This document shows positions 10,581 to 15,202 of a stretch of 52,881 nucleotides of DNA, one piece after another. The stretch's first letter is position 1; the number at the start of each line of letters is the position of its first letter. The notes below the pieces were generated by a model, which made no database searches, was not told the DNA's origin, and saw only the letters and a program-made list of their open reading frames with translations. The translations under genes and the position numbers were made by a program. This DNA is from Aigarchaeota archaeon (GTDB lineage: Archaea; Thermoproteota; Nitrososphaeria_A; Caldarchaeales; Wolframiiraptoraceae), in the NCBI GenBank assembly GCA_025058515.1, contig JANXDW010000001.1, positions 1-52,881 of the forward strand. Reading direction: 5' to 3'.

Positions 10581-10627
10581 TAATTAACAAAAACCAATAC
10601 AATAAATAAGTAGAAGATATTCAATCA

Positions 10628-10716
10628 CGGGCCCGGGGGGACTCGAACCCCCGACCCCCGGCTTTCTCCAAATTATTTAGAAGGCCGATGCTCTATCCAT
10701 GCTGAGCTACGGGCCC
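10628..10716 (-). tRNA. tRNA-Arg (anticodon UCU) with 14-nt intron
   Basis: On the minus strand the acceptor GGGCCCG pairs with CGGGCCC. The D arm is GCTC...GAGC, the anticodon stem TCGGC pairs with GCCGG, and the T arm is GGGGG-TTCGAGT-CCCCC. The mature anticodon loop is CTTCTAA with anticodon TCT. Fourteen bases (AATAATTTGGAGAA) interrupt the loop after position 37, the canonical archaeal intron site. The discriminator base is G (10628). CCA is not encoded. The variable loop is five bases, GGGTC. A weak TATA-like GGTTTAAC about 36 nt upstream lies inside the 94-nt repeat described separately. All stems are GC-rich, consistent with a thermophile. Confidence 0.95.
10664..10677 (-). other. tRNA-Arg intron (position 37/38)
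   Basis: Fourteen bases, AATAATTTGGAGAA, must be removed to give a seven-base anticodon loop and a continuous anticodon stem. The position after base 37 is the usual place for archaeal bulge-helix-bulge introns cut by the splicing endonuclease. A one-base shift of the boundaries is possible because A residues occur on both sides. Confidence 0.85.
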
Positions 10717-10808
10717 ATCCATGTTTCTAAACACCGTGAGTAGAGATTGTTAAACCTTTCACAGTTTGAAGAATGTGGTAAGCGGTATTTAGAGTTTAAT
10801 CCTCAGCT
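10715..10808 (+). repeat. 94-nt direct repeat, copy 1
   Basis: The block from CCATCCATGTTTCTAAACAC to TTTAATCCTCAGCT is repeated at 15093-15186 in the same orientation, with the same length, no gaps and five mismatches that I can count (about 95% identity). The left edge falls within two bases of the 5' end of the tRNA-Arg gene. The two copies bracket the accessory block of about 4.3 kb. Read on the minus strand, it is the immediate upstream region of the tRNA. Confidence 0.93.
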
Positions 10809-10908
10809 TCTCGAGAGGCGTCAGCATTATGCTTTAGTCAAGGTCTTGGAGTTTCTGAAGAAGGAACTTTACGTTTCGAGTGTTCTGAGTTTCTGCTGTT
10901 ACTTTTGA
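10717..10908 (+). pseudogene. Decayed coding fragment spanning repeat copy 1
   Basis: In the frame ATC CAT GTT TCT the repeat reads as protein with one stop (GAG TAG AGA). It continues past the repeat as QFEECGKRYLEFNPQL, then LLERRQHYALVKVLEFLKKELYVSS, ending at a TGA. At the position of this stop copy 2 has a sense codon, and the converse holds at copy 2's internal stop, so an ancestral open frame is likely. I do not recognise the family; a mobile-element protein is only one possibility. No start codon or promoter belongs to this copy, whose 5' side is cut off by the tRNA gene. A TTG at 10747 could open a 53-codon ORF, but I regard this as a remnant. Confidence 0.5.
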
Positions 10909-11041
10909 TAACCGATTTTTAATAGGCGAAGAATATAAGCATTTACAATAGCAGAATTCAGACCTGATAGCTATATGAAAAGTTATTGAAGAAGATTATA
11001 AAAACGATAAGTGAATTTTTAGACTCACTTTGAACAGAAAG

Positions 11042-11051
11042 CTTTTAAATA
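11042..11051 (+). promoter_or_regulatory. TATA box for the zinc-ribbon membrane protein
   Basis: CTTTTAAATA lies with its centre about 25 nt before the ATG at 11072, the spacing of an archaeal TATA box to the start site of a leaderless mRNA. This supports 11072 rather than the earlier ORF-track start at 11030, which would place the TATA box inside the coding region. Confidence 0.65.
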
Positions 11052-11071
11052 ATGATCTACAAATTTTTTAT

Positions 11072-11407
11072 ATGCCCATACAGGGAATAGAATGGATTAT
11101 TATACCTTTCATTGCAGTGTTGATACTCATAATCGTAGCTATCAGATATCCAACTTTGAGGGTTGGATTCGGAGCAGCATTAGCAGTTCTCGGAACATTA
11201 TTATTTCCCATACCCTTGATAGGACCATTTCTAGGCGGAGCCTCATTAGTAATTGGTATATTTTTATTGGCTTGGGGGGTTGCAACGCTTTCAAGTAAGA
11301 GAGAACGCTCTCATATCTTAAGAATCTGTCCAGGATGTGGTAGAGATATAAGTTCATTCCCAGATGACATAAAGAGATGTCCATATTGTGGTAGAGAATT
11401 AACTTAA
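11072..11407 (+). CDS. Two-TM membrane protein with C-terminal zinc ribbon
   Basis: Starting at MPIQGIEWIII the protein has 111 residues. Two to three hydrophobic stretches (WIIIPFIAVLILIIVAIRY; VGFGAALAVLGTLLFPIPLIGPFLGGASLVIGIFLLAWGVATL) form a membrane hairpin. The soluble C-terminus is a rubredoxin-like zinc ribbon, CPGCGRDI...CPYCGREL, with two CxxC pairs 19 residues apart. The start is chosen from the TATA spacing; the ORF track begins 14 codons earlier. Small membrane/zinc-ribbon proteins of this type are common in archaea and mostly uncharacterised. It is the first gene of the accessory block, on the opposite strand from the large protease. No function is proposed. Confidence 0.7.
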   Translation: MPIQGIEWIIIPFIAVLILIIVAIRYPTLRVGFGAALAVLGTLLFPIPLIGPFLGGASLVIGIFLLAWGVATLSSKRERSHILRICPGCGRDISSFPDDIKRCPYCGRELT

Positions 11408-11601
11408 TCCTAATTACTTAACAAAACAATCTTATGTTATCATCATAACTATTTTCTGGGAAGAATTTTAATGTAAAAGTTTAAATCAAATCGGTATGTA
11501 GTTGAAGTTGTACGTCTTCGGAAGAGATTATAAGTTTAGAAGAGGCTGAAGGAATAGCAATACGTTTAGTAACTACGAGGATAAAGAACTTTATTGGAAA
11601 T

Positions 11602-11799
11602 TTGCCTGTTAAAAACATAGTAGTAGAGAGTACTAATCTTAAGCAAATAGGTAGCTTATTAGTTTATGAAATAAATGGTAAAGCTGAGATAGTAGTTAAA
11701 CCTAAAGGAATATTTTCACTTGAAGAGACAGAGTTTAAAATGTTCGTAGTTAAAGTTCATGCTACTAGTGGGAAACCTCTTGGAATAACATTCACATAA
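11602..11799 (+). CDS. Short hypothetical ORF, probably truncated at its 5' end
   Basis: The ORF track begins at a TTG (MPVKNIVVES...). The same frame is open from 11506 and reads EEIISLEEAEGIAIRLVTTRIKNFIGNL before that point, a sequence that looks like genuine protein but has no ATG or GTG. The full open stretch is about 97 codons. The ISLEEAEGIAIRLV segment resembles the start of PepSY-like domains, which are usually secreted, yet no signal peptide is present, so the 5' end may have been lost or frame-shifted: a parallel frame begins TTG AAG TTG TAC at 11502 and stops after 15 codons. A TATA-like GTTTAAATC sits near 11480. Function unknown; it may be a pseudogene. Confidence 0.4.
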   Translation: MPVKNIVVESTNLKQIGSLLVYEINGKAEIVVKPKGIFSLEETEFKMFVVKVHATSGKPLGITFT

Positions 11800-11835
11800 A
11801 ATAAGGATATAAACCCCTTACAATATATTTTATGA

Positions 11836-12000
11836 TTACCGGACCATTATTAAGATCCTTCGTCTAGTGTCGACATCTAATAGTAATCTTATTAGTTTTT
11901 CTTCTTTCGGAACATAGGATACTTTCTTCAAAAATTTGGAACCGAAATCAGATGGAAACTTTAATTCGTAGAATAATATTGATGAACATAATCTAAACGT
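11836..12000 (-). pseudogene. ArsR-like winged-helix N-terminal remnant
   Basis: This minus-strand frame, too short for the ORF track and without ATG, is open for 54 codons. It reads ...FLKKVSYVPKEEKLIRLLLDVDTRRRILIMVR before a TAA. The LIRLLLDVDTRRRIL part resembles the first helices of ArsR-type HTH regulators (L...L.D.TRRRIL.LL), but the frame stops where the recognition helix should follow. It lies 50 nt downstream of the protease gene on the same strand. It may be a fragment of a regulator that once belonged to this block. Evidence is motif-level only. Confidence 0.3.
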
Positions 12001-12049
12001 TCACTATTATAATTGGGATGCGCTGTTCTCTAACTTATTGATGAGCGTG

Positions 12050-14908
12050 TTATTCGCTTTCGAGTAATTTCTTAAACTTGATTAGGCTCTCATTTAATTG
12101 TTTTATCTCATCTGCTAACTTTCCAGACATGACGATATATGTTTCTTTACTTATAGTGCCTGAACTATATTTCTGTAATAAGACTTTCAAGACCTCTTCT
12201 TTCTGGACTATCTGTTTTTCCATATCCCTTATATGTTCTCTAAGCCTGTCTTTAAGAGTCTTTAAACTATCTTCTATTTTTGATTTCATGCTTAAATAAT
12301 CTGCTTCGCTTATTACTTGTTGACCTCGCAGAGTATCTAATTTTCCTAAGAGAATTTTTAGATTCTGTATATTCAACTCTATTTCTTCAAGCTTTATAGA
12401 TGGTGGTTTTTCAATAATTACCTGAGCAGGAAGCTCAGTAGCAGATAATGTGGTAGGTTTAATCTGAGCTTTTCTTCGTCTAACTATAACCACAACTCCT
12501 AAGATGGTCATCAGTAGTATGATAGTGAATATGATGAAATTAATGAAAGCTACGTTAATTTCATTATATAGTGATCTTTCGGAAAGTATTGGTTCGAAGT
12601 TATCTCTTTCAATCCTTAATCTGAAGTTTTCAGTTGTTCCTGACATAGAGATTTTTATTTCATATTTTCCATTACCCAAATTATTTAGAGGGATTCCATT
12701 TACAATCACATTAGCATCATTTAGAGGAGTGTTATCTGACTCATATCTTAACCACACGTTTACATGAGCTCCAAATAGTTCAGGTTTGATATCCCATTTC
12801 CAAATTATTCTGTCAAATATTAATTCAATTGCGTTTGATTCAAAACGTGTTAAACCATATTTTTCATCTACGATATTATCCGCCTCTAATACCTTTTTTG
12901 CTATTTGGTGTTCTGGAGCAAATATTATTCTCATAGAGTAATCCTGACGATAATTTAAGATATTTCCATTAATTACTATTTTTCCTTCAAACGTTTCTCC
13001 ATCATAAGCATACTGTGCTCTTAAATTGACTTCAGCAGCTCTACCAACCTGGACCCTTTGAATTTCAGGCGATAACATAACTATAACCTTGTCGAATATT
13101 ACTGTTATTTCGTTACTTGAAAATGTTGTTAAACCATATTTTTCATCTACAACTTCTTTGGCTCTGAAGGTCTTGCTACCAACGTAGTCTAATGATGTTG
13201 GCTCTGGATCTACTATTACCTTACCTACGAAGGGCGACTTATCATATTCATACCAAGCTTTATAATGAATTACTGGTATAGAACCGATATCTATCCGCTC
13301 ATCTTCAGTCGAAAGGTCGATAGAAATCCTGTCATAAATGACTTTCAATGGAGGTGTCTTCATTTCAACTTTTTCAATTATTTCTTCGACTTCTCCGGAG
13401 CTTGTAGCAATAACTATCTCACCACCTGTGACAGTATAGACTTTCTCGCCTACAGATGAGGATGTATCCGAAATATAGAACCAACCATTTCCTTCTGGTT
13501 GAGAACCGACTTCATTTATTAGTATTGTACCTCCAGTCAATGGCTCACCATTATGAGCCCATATAGCATGAAAACCAATTCTCTGAGATTTACCAACGTC
13601 AACTCTCTCAGGCACCATAGATACTCCATCGATCACTACAAAAGTATGAATACTCGATAAGTCAACAATCACTTTATAGTAGCCGAAATTGTTTTCTATT
13701 TCAATTTTTATATCATGTTCTCCAACTCCATGAAAGGGTATTCTGAAATGTATATCTTCTATAGATGAATCTGGCTGCTTTCCATCAACTGTACCCATTA
13801 CAAAACTTTCTTTCTCATCTCCTAAAGATACTGTCACTATAACACTCTTTATCTTTACGATAGTTATATCCCTTCCCGAACCATAGGGATTCCGATTGGG
13901 AAGCGGATGTACAATGATTCTACCAATAAAATCTAGGGTATCGTCATCAGTGAAAGATTTAAAACCAGGGAGGCTTGTCTCAATTTTAACTTCTAAAAGA
14001 TCCAATATACCATTATGATTACCGTCAACCCACCCTATCTGACGTTTAGTACCTTCAGAAAGACACCATAGTCCAAGTGCCTTTTTCATAGAAAACAAAA
14101 ATTCTAACAAAAGATCTTTTAATGATTTGAATGTCTCAAAAGGAACATCCATTAGACAATTAGAGTTGTCTTCATCATAAAACCCAAAGTAGCCACTAAC
14201 TTCAGGAATATTGTCATATTCATCTGTGGCATAAAATATGTGAGCTATTTCATGCGCAATAGTTGCTTCATTAATTTTCATGATATCAAGGTCGATACCC
14301 GGAATATCGATTAGTGGAATTTCTTTTGGCATCCACCCAACTACTAAATATGGTCCTCCAGGAAGTGCGAAACCTACCGCTTCACCTCCAAAATTATTAC
14401 CTCTTACATCTTTCACCATAAATATTAAAAATCCCCAATCAGTTTTTTCTCTTCCTCTTAGTTCATTCACTATCTTTTTAGCCTTATGAATGTAGTCTCC
14501 TTCCTTATAGCCCATTTCATTTAACACATCAGAAACCCATATATGATGTTCATTAGGTGACATCTTGGATGGAATGTAGTTAGTGTAAATAGGCCCAGTC
14601 ACATAGAGTAGTTTAAACCTTAATGGTACATTGTTTTTTGAAGCCTGTTCTTCCCACCAATTGAATGCTTCGTTTACATCATCTAATGCATTATTCATCT
14701 CATCACGTGACCAACTTGCTATTGGATCATTAACAAATATCGCTAGAGCCGCTACGTCCCCAATCATATACTCACTAGTCTCATCAAACCCTGGCTCAGG
14801 ATTCTCTATAGAGTGCTTTTCAGATATAGCTGAAAGAAATGTTAAAACGAAACCACCTAAAACTAAAAATAAAATACACATAAGTAGCATTAATTTATTA
14901 AACGACAT
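12050..14908 (-). CDS. Membrane-anchored metzincin-like metalloprotease with cytoplasmic SHOCT-like tail
   Basis: A 952-residue protein. It begins with a signal-anchor (LMLLMCILFLVLGGFVLTFL, about 6-25). The extracellular catalytic region contains ATIAHEIAHIFYATDEYD: H219-E220-x-x-H223 followed by Asp229 at the third-ligand position of a metzincin (HExxHxxGxxH/D), with Tyr226 where Gly is usual. NCLMDVP downstream could be the Met-turn. Residues of about 300-780 are beta-rich, with at least two related units ending DEKYGLTxFxSNxIxxIFD. A second TM helix (about 786-809) and RRRK stop-transfer precede a 139-residue tail with two SHOCT-like stretches (LRGQQVISEADYLSMKSKI; LLQKYSSGTISKETYIVMSGKL) and coiled coil. 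Its own TATA box lies 28 nt upstream. Substrate unknown. Confidence 0.7.
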   Translation of the reverse strand: MSFNKLMLLMCILFLVLGGFVLTFLSAISEKHSIENPEPGFDETSEYMIGDVAALAIFVNDPIASWSRDEMNNALDDVNEAFNWWEEQASKNNVPLRFKLLYVTGPIYTNYIPSKMSPNEHHIWVSDVLNEMGYKEGDYIHKAKKIVNELRGREKTDWGFLIFMVKDVRGNNFGGEAVGFALPGGPYLVVGWMPKEIPLIDIPGIDLDIMKINEATIAHEIAHIFYATDEYDNIPEVSGYFGFYDEDNSNCLMDVPFETFKSLKDLLLEFLFSMKKALGLWCLSEGTKRQIGWVDGNHNGILDLLEVKIETSLPGFKSFTDDDTLDFIGRIIVHPLPNRNPYGSGRDITIVKIKSVIVTVSLGDEKESFVMGTVDGKQPDSSIEDIHFRIPFHGVGEHDIKIEIENNFGYYKVIVDLSSIHTFVVIDGVSMVPERVDVGKSQRIGFHAIWAHNGEPLTGGTILINEVGSQPEGNGWFYISDTSSSVGEKVYTVTGGEIVIATSSGEVEEIIEKVEMKTPPLKVIYDRISIDLSTEDERIDIGSIPVIHYKAWYEYDKSPFVGKVIVDPEPTSLDYVGSKTFRAKEVVDEKYGLTTFSSNEITVIFDKVIVMLSPEIQRVQVGRAAEVNLRAQYAYDGETFEGKIVINGNILNYRQDYSMRIIFAPEHQIAKKVLEADNIVDEKYGLTRFESNAIELIFDRIIWKWDIKPELFGAHVNVWLRYESDNTPLNDANVIVNGIPLNNLGNGKYEIKISMSGTTENFRLRIERDNFEPILSERSLYNEINVAFINFIIFTIILLMTILGVVVIVRRRKAQIKPTTLSATELPAQVIIEKPPSIKLEEIELNIQNLKILLGKLDTLRGQQVISEADYLSMKSKIEDSLKTLKDRLREHIRDMEKQIVQKEEVLKVLLQKYSSGTISKETYIVMSGKLADEIKQLNESLIKFKKLLESE

Positions 14909-14930
14909 ACTGATATAAATTATACTAAAG

Positions 14931-14943
14931 ATATTTTATAAAT
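14931..14943 (-). promoter_or_regulatory. TATA box of the metzincin-like gene
   Basis: On the minus strand ATTTATAAAATAT is centred about 28 nt before the ATG at 14908, suggesting an essentially leaderless transcript for the large protease gene. Confidence 0.5.
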
Positions 14944-15009
14944 ATTAATCCTAAAATATTTAATTATCCTAGTTTATTTAATGAGTTCATCACAAAAATC
15001 TTGATATCC

Positions 15010-15017
15010 TTATAAAT
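15010..15017 (+). promoter_or_regulatory. TATA box of the decayed gene carrying repeat copy 2
   Basis: TTATAAAT is followed about 31 nt downstream by GAGG (15045-15048) and, two bases later, an ATG at 15050. This keeps a recognisable promoter, ribosome-binding site and start in front of a reading frame that is now interrupted by stops. Confidence 0.4.
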
Positions 15018-15049
15018 ACTCAAACAAAATATAACACTTTAACAGAGGA

Positions 15050-15202
15050 ATGTTCATGGTATGTTTTGAGTAACGTAAAATCTTCTGTTTCGCCATCCAT
15101 GTTTCTAAACACTGTGAGAAGAGATTGTTAAATCTTTAACAGTTTGAAGAATGTGTTAAGCGGTATTTAGAGTTTAATCCTCAGCTCTTGAGGCTGGGTT
15201 AG
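15050..15202 (+). pseudogene. Decayed coding fragment spanning repeat copy 2
   Basis: From ATG 15050 a single frame reads MFMVCFE-stop-RKIFCFAIHVSKHCEKRLLNL-stop-QFEECVKRYLEFNPQLLRLG-stop. The second half is the same protein sequence as in copy 1. Two internal TAA codons interrupt it, and after NPQLL the similarity to copy 1 ends. A ribosome-binding site and TATA box remain upstream. This is best read as the 5' part of a dead gene whose middle part is retained in copy 1. The family is not recognised. Suppression or recoding of TAA is not expected, so I treat it as a pseudogene. Confidence 0.5.
15093..15186 (+). repeat. 94-nt direct repeat, copy 2
   Basis: Second copy of the block described at 10715-10808, in the same orientation and without indels. 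Here the sequence to the left is CTTCTGTTTCG instead of the tRNA gene. The remaining part of this 527-nt gap between the protease and guaB, 15203-15384, is AT-rich and shows me nothing besides the guaB promoter. Confidence 0.93.

What the first reader, a model, noticed from the sequence alone, without database searches (positions are those of the whole stretch)
10715..15186. 94-nt direct repeats flank an accessory block, one edge at the tRNA-Arg 5' end
Copies at 10715-10808 and 15093-15186 are the same length and about 95% identical. Copy 1 begins within two bases of the tRNA 5' end. The block between them has only accessory or unrecognised genes, is richer in AT, and contains broken frames. 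This is what an integrated or recombined element would leave. Classic archaeal integrases use the 3' half of tRNAs, so a boundary at the 5' end is unusual.
Basis: partly seen in the sequence, partly recalled or inferred. Interest (0 to 1): 0.75.

Follow-up and report, generated by a model that had tools for sequence, protein, structure and literature searches.

The report
Integrase gene relics at tRNA-Arg 5' end
The two 94-base repeats are broken copies of the start of an archaeal integrase gene, left where small mobile elements inserted at the 5' end of an arginine tRNA gene; the tRNA edge is real and fits a consistent habit in this group of hot-spring archaea, but such insertions were already known there.

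Summary
The repeat pair is real: 94 nt, 89/94 identical, copy 1 overlapping the tRNA-Arg(TCT) 5' end by two bases. But the repeats are not attachment sites. Both are fragments of the first codons of a tyrosine integrase gene. Intact relatives occur in Caldarchaeales (Aigarchaeota) and one Bathyarchaeota MAG. In all 14 loci where the integrase N-terminus could be placed beside a complete tRNA, it lies at the tRNA's 5' end (Arg/Lys type) and reads away from it. Where an element's far end is visible, the first 20-26 nt of the tRNA are repeated 2.6-7.4 kb away, sometimes followed by an older integrase relic. Two other tRNA-Arg genes of this genome show the same pattern. The window is most likely a decayed case of repeated integration at tRNA-Arg(TCT): copy 1 is the relic beside the tRNA, copy 2 an earlier relic pushed 4.4 kb away. 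Weak point: no tRNA core survives before copy 2, so duplication of a single relic remains possible. Congeners lack the 4.3-kb block, but gene order around these tRNAs is so reshuffled that no clean empty site exists. tRNA 5'-end integration is already published (CalSub-E1, pTN3, C. subterraneum tRNA-Thr): a new, broken member of a known kind.

The parts
10627..10716 (-). tRNA-Arg(TCT) gene with an intron; its 5' end is the boundary
   Evidence: ARAGORN 10627-10717; 5' motif GGGCCCGTAGCTCAG at 10702-10716 minus; anticodon loop CTTCTAA read in the sequence
10715..10808 (+). repeat copy 1: leader and first codons of a decayed tyrosine-integrase gene, abutting the tRNA 5' end
   Evidence: integrase match 10750-10884 E=2.3e-12
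10809..10884 (+). continuation of the integrase relic beyond the repeat (to about residue 52 of ~354)
   Evidence: tblastn; profile match 10741-10884 E=1.7e-12
11072..11407 (+). membrane protein with C-terminal zinc ribbon, block gene
   Evidence: ORF; weak zinc-ribbon Pfam matches below cut-off
12050..14908 (-). intact 952-aa gene with HEIAH (HExxH-type) motif and repeated segments, block gene of unproven relation to the element
   Evidence: partial relatives in only two of 40 related genomes
15093..15186 (+). repeat copy 2: second, shorter integrase relic; no tRNA core to its left
   Evidence: integrase match 15128-15190; no tRNA similarity upstream

Best explanation
Small integrative elements encode a tyrosine integrase that recombines their attP with the first ~20-26 nt of a tRNA gene. 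Integration rebuilds the tRNA from the host's 3' part and the element's copy of the 5' end, places the integrase start about 30-125 bp from the tRNA 5' end reading away from it, and leaves a second ~20-nt copy of the tRNA 5' end at the far junction (anatomy shown in relatives; the reaction itself is inferred). The site can be used again, so a newer element lies beside the tRNA and the older element's integrase is pushed outward (anatomy shown in relatives). The window is inferred to be a decayed product of this: copy 1 is what remains of the integrase beside tRNA-Arg(TCT), copy 2 the matching piece of an earlier, closely related integrase displaced by 4.4 kb, and the block between them is leftover or later-acquired cargo. 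The tRNA core before copy 2 has been lost. Neither copy can now encode an integrase.
For: Repeats are integrase N-terminal sequence. Intact relatives have the R..HxxR..H..Y residues and PF00589. 14 of 14 placed N-termini lie at a tRNA 5' end, same orientation. Second tRNA 5' cores at the element's far end in L051, L053, L060, L062, L189, and more diverged in L059. Integrase relic right behind the second core in L051, L062 and own C36. Block absent from congeners.
Against: No tRNA core to the left of copy 2 (p=0.91), although the adjacent 92 nt are 95% conserved. Both copies share the same short leader lacking the TATA stretch of intact members, which fits copying of one relic as well. No other element gene found in the block. 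No clean empty site. Single MAG assembly.
Confidence: 0.6

Rival explanations
1. One integration, then local duplication: a single old integrase relic beside tRNA-Arg(TCT) was copied (microhomology-mediated or unequal recombination, or carried in with the block) to 4.4 kb away; there was no second integration.
For: Identity starts within two bases of the tRNA edge with no core before copy 2; both copies share the short leader and apparent frame damage.
Against: Displaced integrase relics behind a far-end core are seen at other tRNAs of the family, so serial integration needs no special event.
Confidence: 0.25
2. The 94-nt repeats are the attL and attR sites of the block itself.
For: They flank an AT-rich accessory block and one begins at a tRNA edge.
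Against: The repeat is integrase coding sequence, and in relatives the repeated core is tRNA nt 1 to ~20 and does not run on into the integrase leader.
Confidence: 0.05
3. Chromosome rearrangement or misassembly brought two unrelated relic-bearing regions together: copy 2 with guaB came from another place.
For: guaB and HisC neighbourhoods differ from congeners and tRNA flanks are reshuffled across the genus.
Against: Copies are 95% identical while relics at different tRNAs of this genome match only over 36 nt; no tRNA beside copy 2.
Confidence: 0.1

Closest known systems
CalSub-E1 of Ca. Caldiarchaeum subterraneum (Krupovic et al. 2019, PMC6563490)
   Same: Same order; integration at the 5'-distal part of a tRNA gene (tRNA-Ser). 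In G024, a single-contig genome whose length matches C. subterraneum from memory, a homologous integrase (E=3e-41) faces the tRNA-Ser 5' end and tRNA nt 1-20 are repeated 7.2 kb away.
   Different: Window copy is decayed, at tRNA-Arg(TCT), with two relics and no surviving far core.
tRNA-Thr(GGU) insertion of C. subterraneum (Sugahara et al. 2012, PMC3293823)
   Same: 5' fragment of a tRNA repeated at the far side of an insertion with a recombinase gene beside the tRNA.
   Different: Different tRNA, 1.8-kb insert; homology of its recombinase to this family not tested here.
pTN3-like suicidal integrases of Thermococcales (Cossu 2017 PMC5495485; review PMC8371274)
   Same: attB is the 5' half of a tRNA gene.
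   Different: pTN3 integrase is split on integration with att inside the gene; here integrated relatives are full length and the core is shorter.
pNOB8-type (classical) archaeal integrases
   Same: Intact integrase gene next to the reconstituted tRNA.
   Different: Archaeal integrases in general prefer the tRNA 3' end (PMC8371274). Direct homology to pNOB8 integrase not tested.

Membership tests
tRNA 5'-end integrative elements (CalSub-E1-like) | Homologous tyrosine integrase gene beside the tRNA 5' end, reading away from the tRNA | tested here: met
   Copy 1 relic at 10741-10884, E=1.7e-12 against the family profile; starts at the tRNA edge
tRNA 5'-end integrative elements (CalSub-E1-like) | Second copy of the tRNA 5' end (~20 nt) at the far junction | tested here: not met
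   Met in relatives but absent in the window: so the window is called a relic, not an element
tRNA 5'-end integrative elements (CalSub-E1-like) | Functional integrase | tested here: not met
   Only about 45 and 20 codons remain, with stop codons
Suicidal (SSV/pTN3-type) integrases | att site inside the integrase gene; gene split when integrated | tested here: not met
   Five integrated relatives are full length; the leader between tRNA and start codon is not an open frame in G030 and G013
Dispersed repeat (IS, MITE) | Many copies in unrelated contexts | tested here: not met
   Two long copies only; the other matches are the same integrase at tRNA-Arg genes

The most novel reading that the evidence does not exclude
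Caldarchaeales and some Bathyarchaeota carry a distinct non-splitting integrase family specialised for the first ~20 nt of Arg/Lys (and Ser) tRNAs, which re-uses the same tRNAs again and again and supplies the sequence upstream of the tRNA, promoter included. What looked like single exceptions would then be instances of a rule, and these tRNAs would also be hot spots of chromosome shuffling.
Probability: 0.3. Interest if true: 0.6.

Novelty: new member of a known kind. Interest (0 to 1): 0.4.

Why it matters
It turns an odd repeat pair into a record of repeated integration at a tRNA 5' end. With its relatives it suggests that 5'-end targeting, listed in the literature as a rare exception in archaea, is the regular mode of one integrase family in Caldarchaeales. 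Such elements bring their own sequence upstream of the tRNA, so the promoter of an essential tRNA may come from the element.

Tried and rejected
Repeats as att sites: rejected, since they are integrase coding sequence and the family's core lies inside the tRNA. Dispersed repeat: rejected. Hidden tRNA core before copy 2: none. Other element genes (integrase C-terminus, Prim-Pol and others) in the block: none by tblastn. Suicidal integrase: rejected for the family. Empty-site comparison: guaB, the rubrerythrin-like neighbour and HisC were followed into congeners, but tRNA contexts are reshuffled; the same holds at the tRNA-Lys site in genus g4. IMG/VR: no relative of the integrase. Pfam finds nothing in the short fragment itself.

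Full report
Observation. The two 94-nt direct repeats exist at the stated coordinates, 95% identical with five substitutions. The tRNA is tRNA-Arg(TCT) with an intron, minus strand, first base at 10716, so copy 1 shares two bases with it. In the whole genome (1.47 Mb, 53 contigs) the second copy is found at E=4.8e-37 and there is no third long copy. The interval is AT-richer than its surroundings (33.7% against 38.0% GC).

What the repeat is. Two short matches elsewhere in the genome (C36 and C33) lie inside reading frames that begin at the 5' ends of two other arginine tRNA genes. The longer frame is an interrupted integrase. With it, complete relatives were found in other Caldarchaeales genomes and in a Bathyarchaeota MAG: 354-404 aa, with the tyrosine-recombinase catalytic residues, PF00589 well above cut-off, PHROG integrase families and XerC/XerA-like solved structures. 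Copy 1 and its continuation align with residues 8-52 of these proteins (E=2.3e-12; profile E=1.7e-12). Copy 2 aligns with residues 8-28, weakly on its own (E=0.019; 2.4e-4 against the block alone) but securely through its identity to copy 1. Both carry stop codons in the integrase frame, so they are relics.

How the family works. In 14 of 14 loci where the integrase N-terminus could be placed beside a complete tRNA, it lies at the tRNA 5' end and reads away from it: tRNA-Lys(TTT) in G013, G010, G029, G041 and the Bathyarchaeota MAG; tRNA-Arg in G030, G007, G036, G016 (C9) and three times in the own genome; and two further tRNAs matching the tRNA-Arg query in G016 (C8) and G034 (C2), whose isoacceptor was not determined. 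In five loci the element's far end is visible as a second copy of the tRNA 5' end: 23 nt at 5.7 kb in L051, 23 nt at 7.4 kb in L053, about 22 nt at 2.6 kb in own C33, 26 nt at 3.9 kb in L062, and tRNA-Ser nt 1-20 at 7.2 kb in G024. The core runs from within tRNA nt 20-24 to the tRNA's first base or one or two bases past it. In L051 and L062, and in own C36 where the second core is more diverged, an older integrase relic lies directly beyond the second core, the signature of repeated use of one site. Two elements carry a Prim-Pol gene, as expected of integrative plasmids. The integrase is not of the splitting kind: integrated copies are full length, and the leader between tRNA and start codon is not an open frame in G030 and G013.

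Reading the window. Copy 1 sits where the youngest integrase sits in this family. Copy 2 has the orientation and layout of a displaced older relic. What is missing is the tRNA core left of copy 2: the 89 nt there align with the tRNA no better than shuffled sequence. Both copies also share a short leader without the TATA stretch of the intact members. Serial integration followed by loss of the core is the best fit (about 0.6); duplication of one relic is the main rival (about 0.25). Nothing else in the block is recognisable as element machinery. The 952-aa gene is intact and nearly private to this genome: only partial matches in two genomes of another family.

Comparison with relatives. Congeners lack the block at both possible places: the 5' neighbour of tRNA-Arg(TCT) in G001, G003 and G004 is a block containing HisC, and guaB in G001, G003 and G004 follows pyr and purP-like genes. 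Short sequences resembling the same integrase codons lie at tRNA-Arg(TCT) in G001 and G004, and an inverted fragment in G003, so this tRNA was probably a target before the species split. A clean empty site could not be shown because gene order around these tRNAs is reshuffled.

Literature. In a survey of 39 thaumarchaeal tRNA integrations all but one were in the 3'-distal region; the exception, CalSub-E1, is in this order (PMC6563490). pTN3-like integrases use the 5' half (PMC8371274). A tRNA-Thr 5' fragment flanking a recombinase insertion was described in C. subterraneum (PMC3293823).

Noticed in passing
tRNA-Lys(CTT), tRNA-Arg(TCT), (CCG) and (GCG) loci in G000-G004 (e.g. L104, L193, L195, L061; window 9-11 kb): 5' sides of a given isoacceptor tend to be conserved across the genus while 3' sides are exchanged between isoacceptors: the genes 3' of tRNA-Lys(CTT) in G001 lie 3' of tRNA-Arg(TCT) in G004, and the rubrerythrin-like gene is next to Arg(TCT) here but Lys(CTT) in G004. 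Suggests rearrangement breakpoints at the 3' ends of these tRNAs; misassembly not excluded.
   Followed up: partly
L013 1668-1729 and L096 1-63 (G001 contigs C24 and C16): The ~65 nt 3' of tRNA-Arg(TCT) and of tRNA-Arg(GCG) in G001 are nearly identical and both contigs end there.
   Followed up: no
window 12050-14908: Intact 952-aa predicted membrane-anchored protein with an HEIAH metalloprotease-like motif, internal repeats (12811-12871 / 13090-13150, 77%) and a weak CdvA-like coiled coil at the C-terminus; nearly private to this genome.
   Followed up: partly
L207 (own contig C23) 3635-3664: HisC, the 5' neighbour of tRNA-Arg(TCT) in congeners, ends 29 nt before the end of a 3.7-kb contig, so its true neighbour in this genome is unknown.
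   Followed up: partly
L052, L053, L055, L109 integrase leaders: A conserved TATTTAAATA stretch about 20-28 nt upstream of the tRNA 5' end lies in the element's integrase leader, so the element may supply the tRNA promoter.
   Followed up: no
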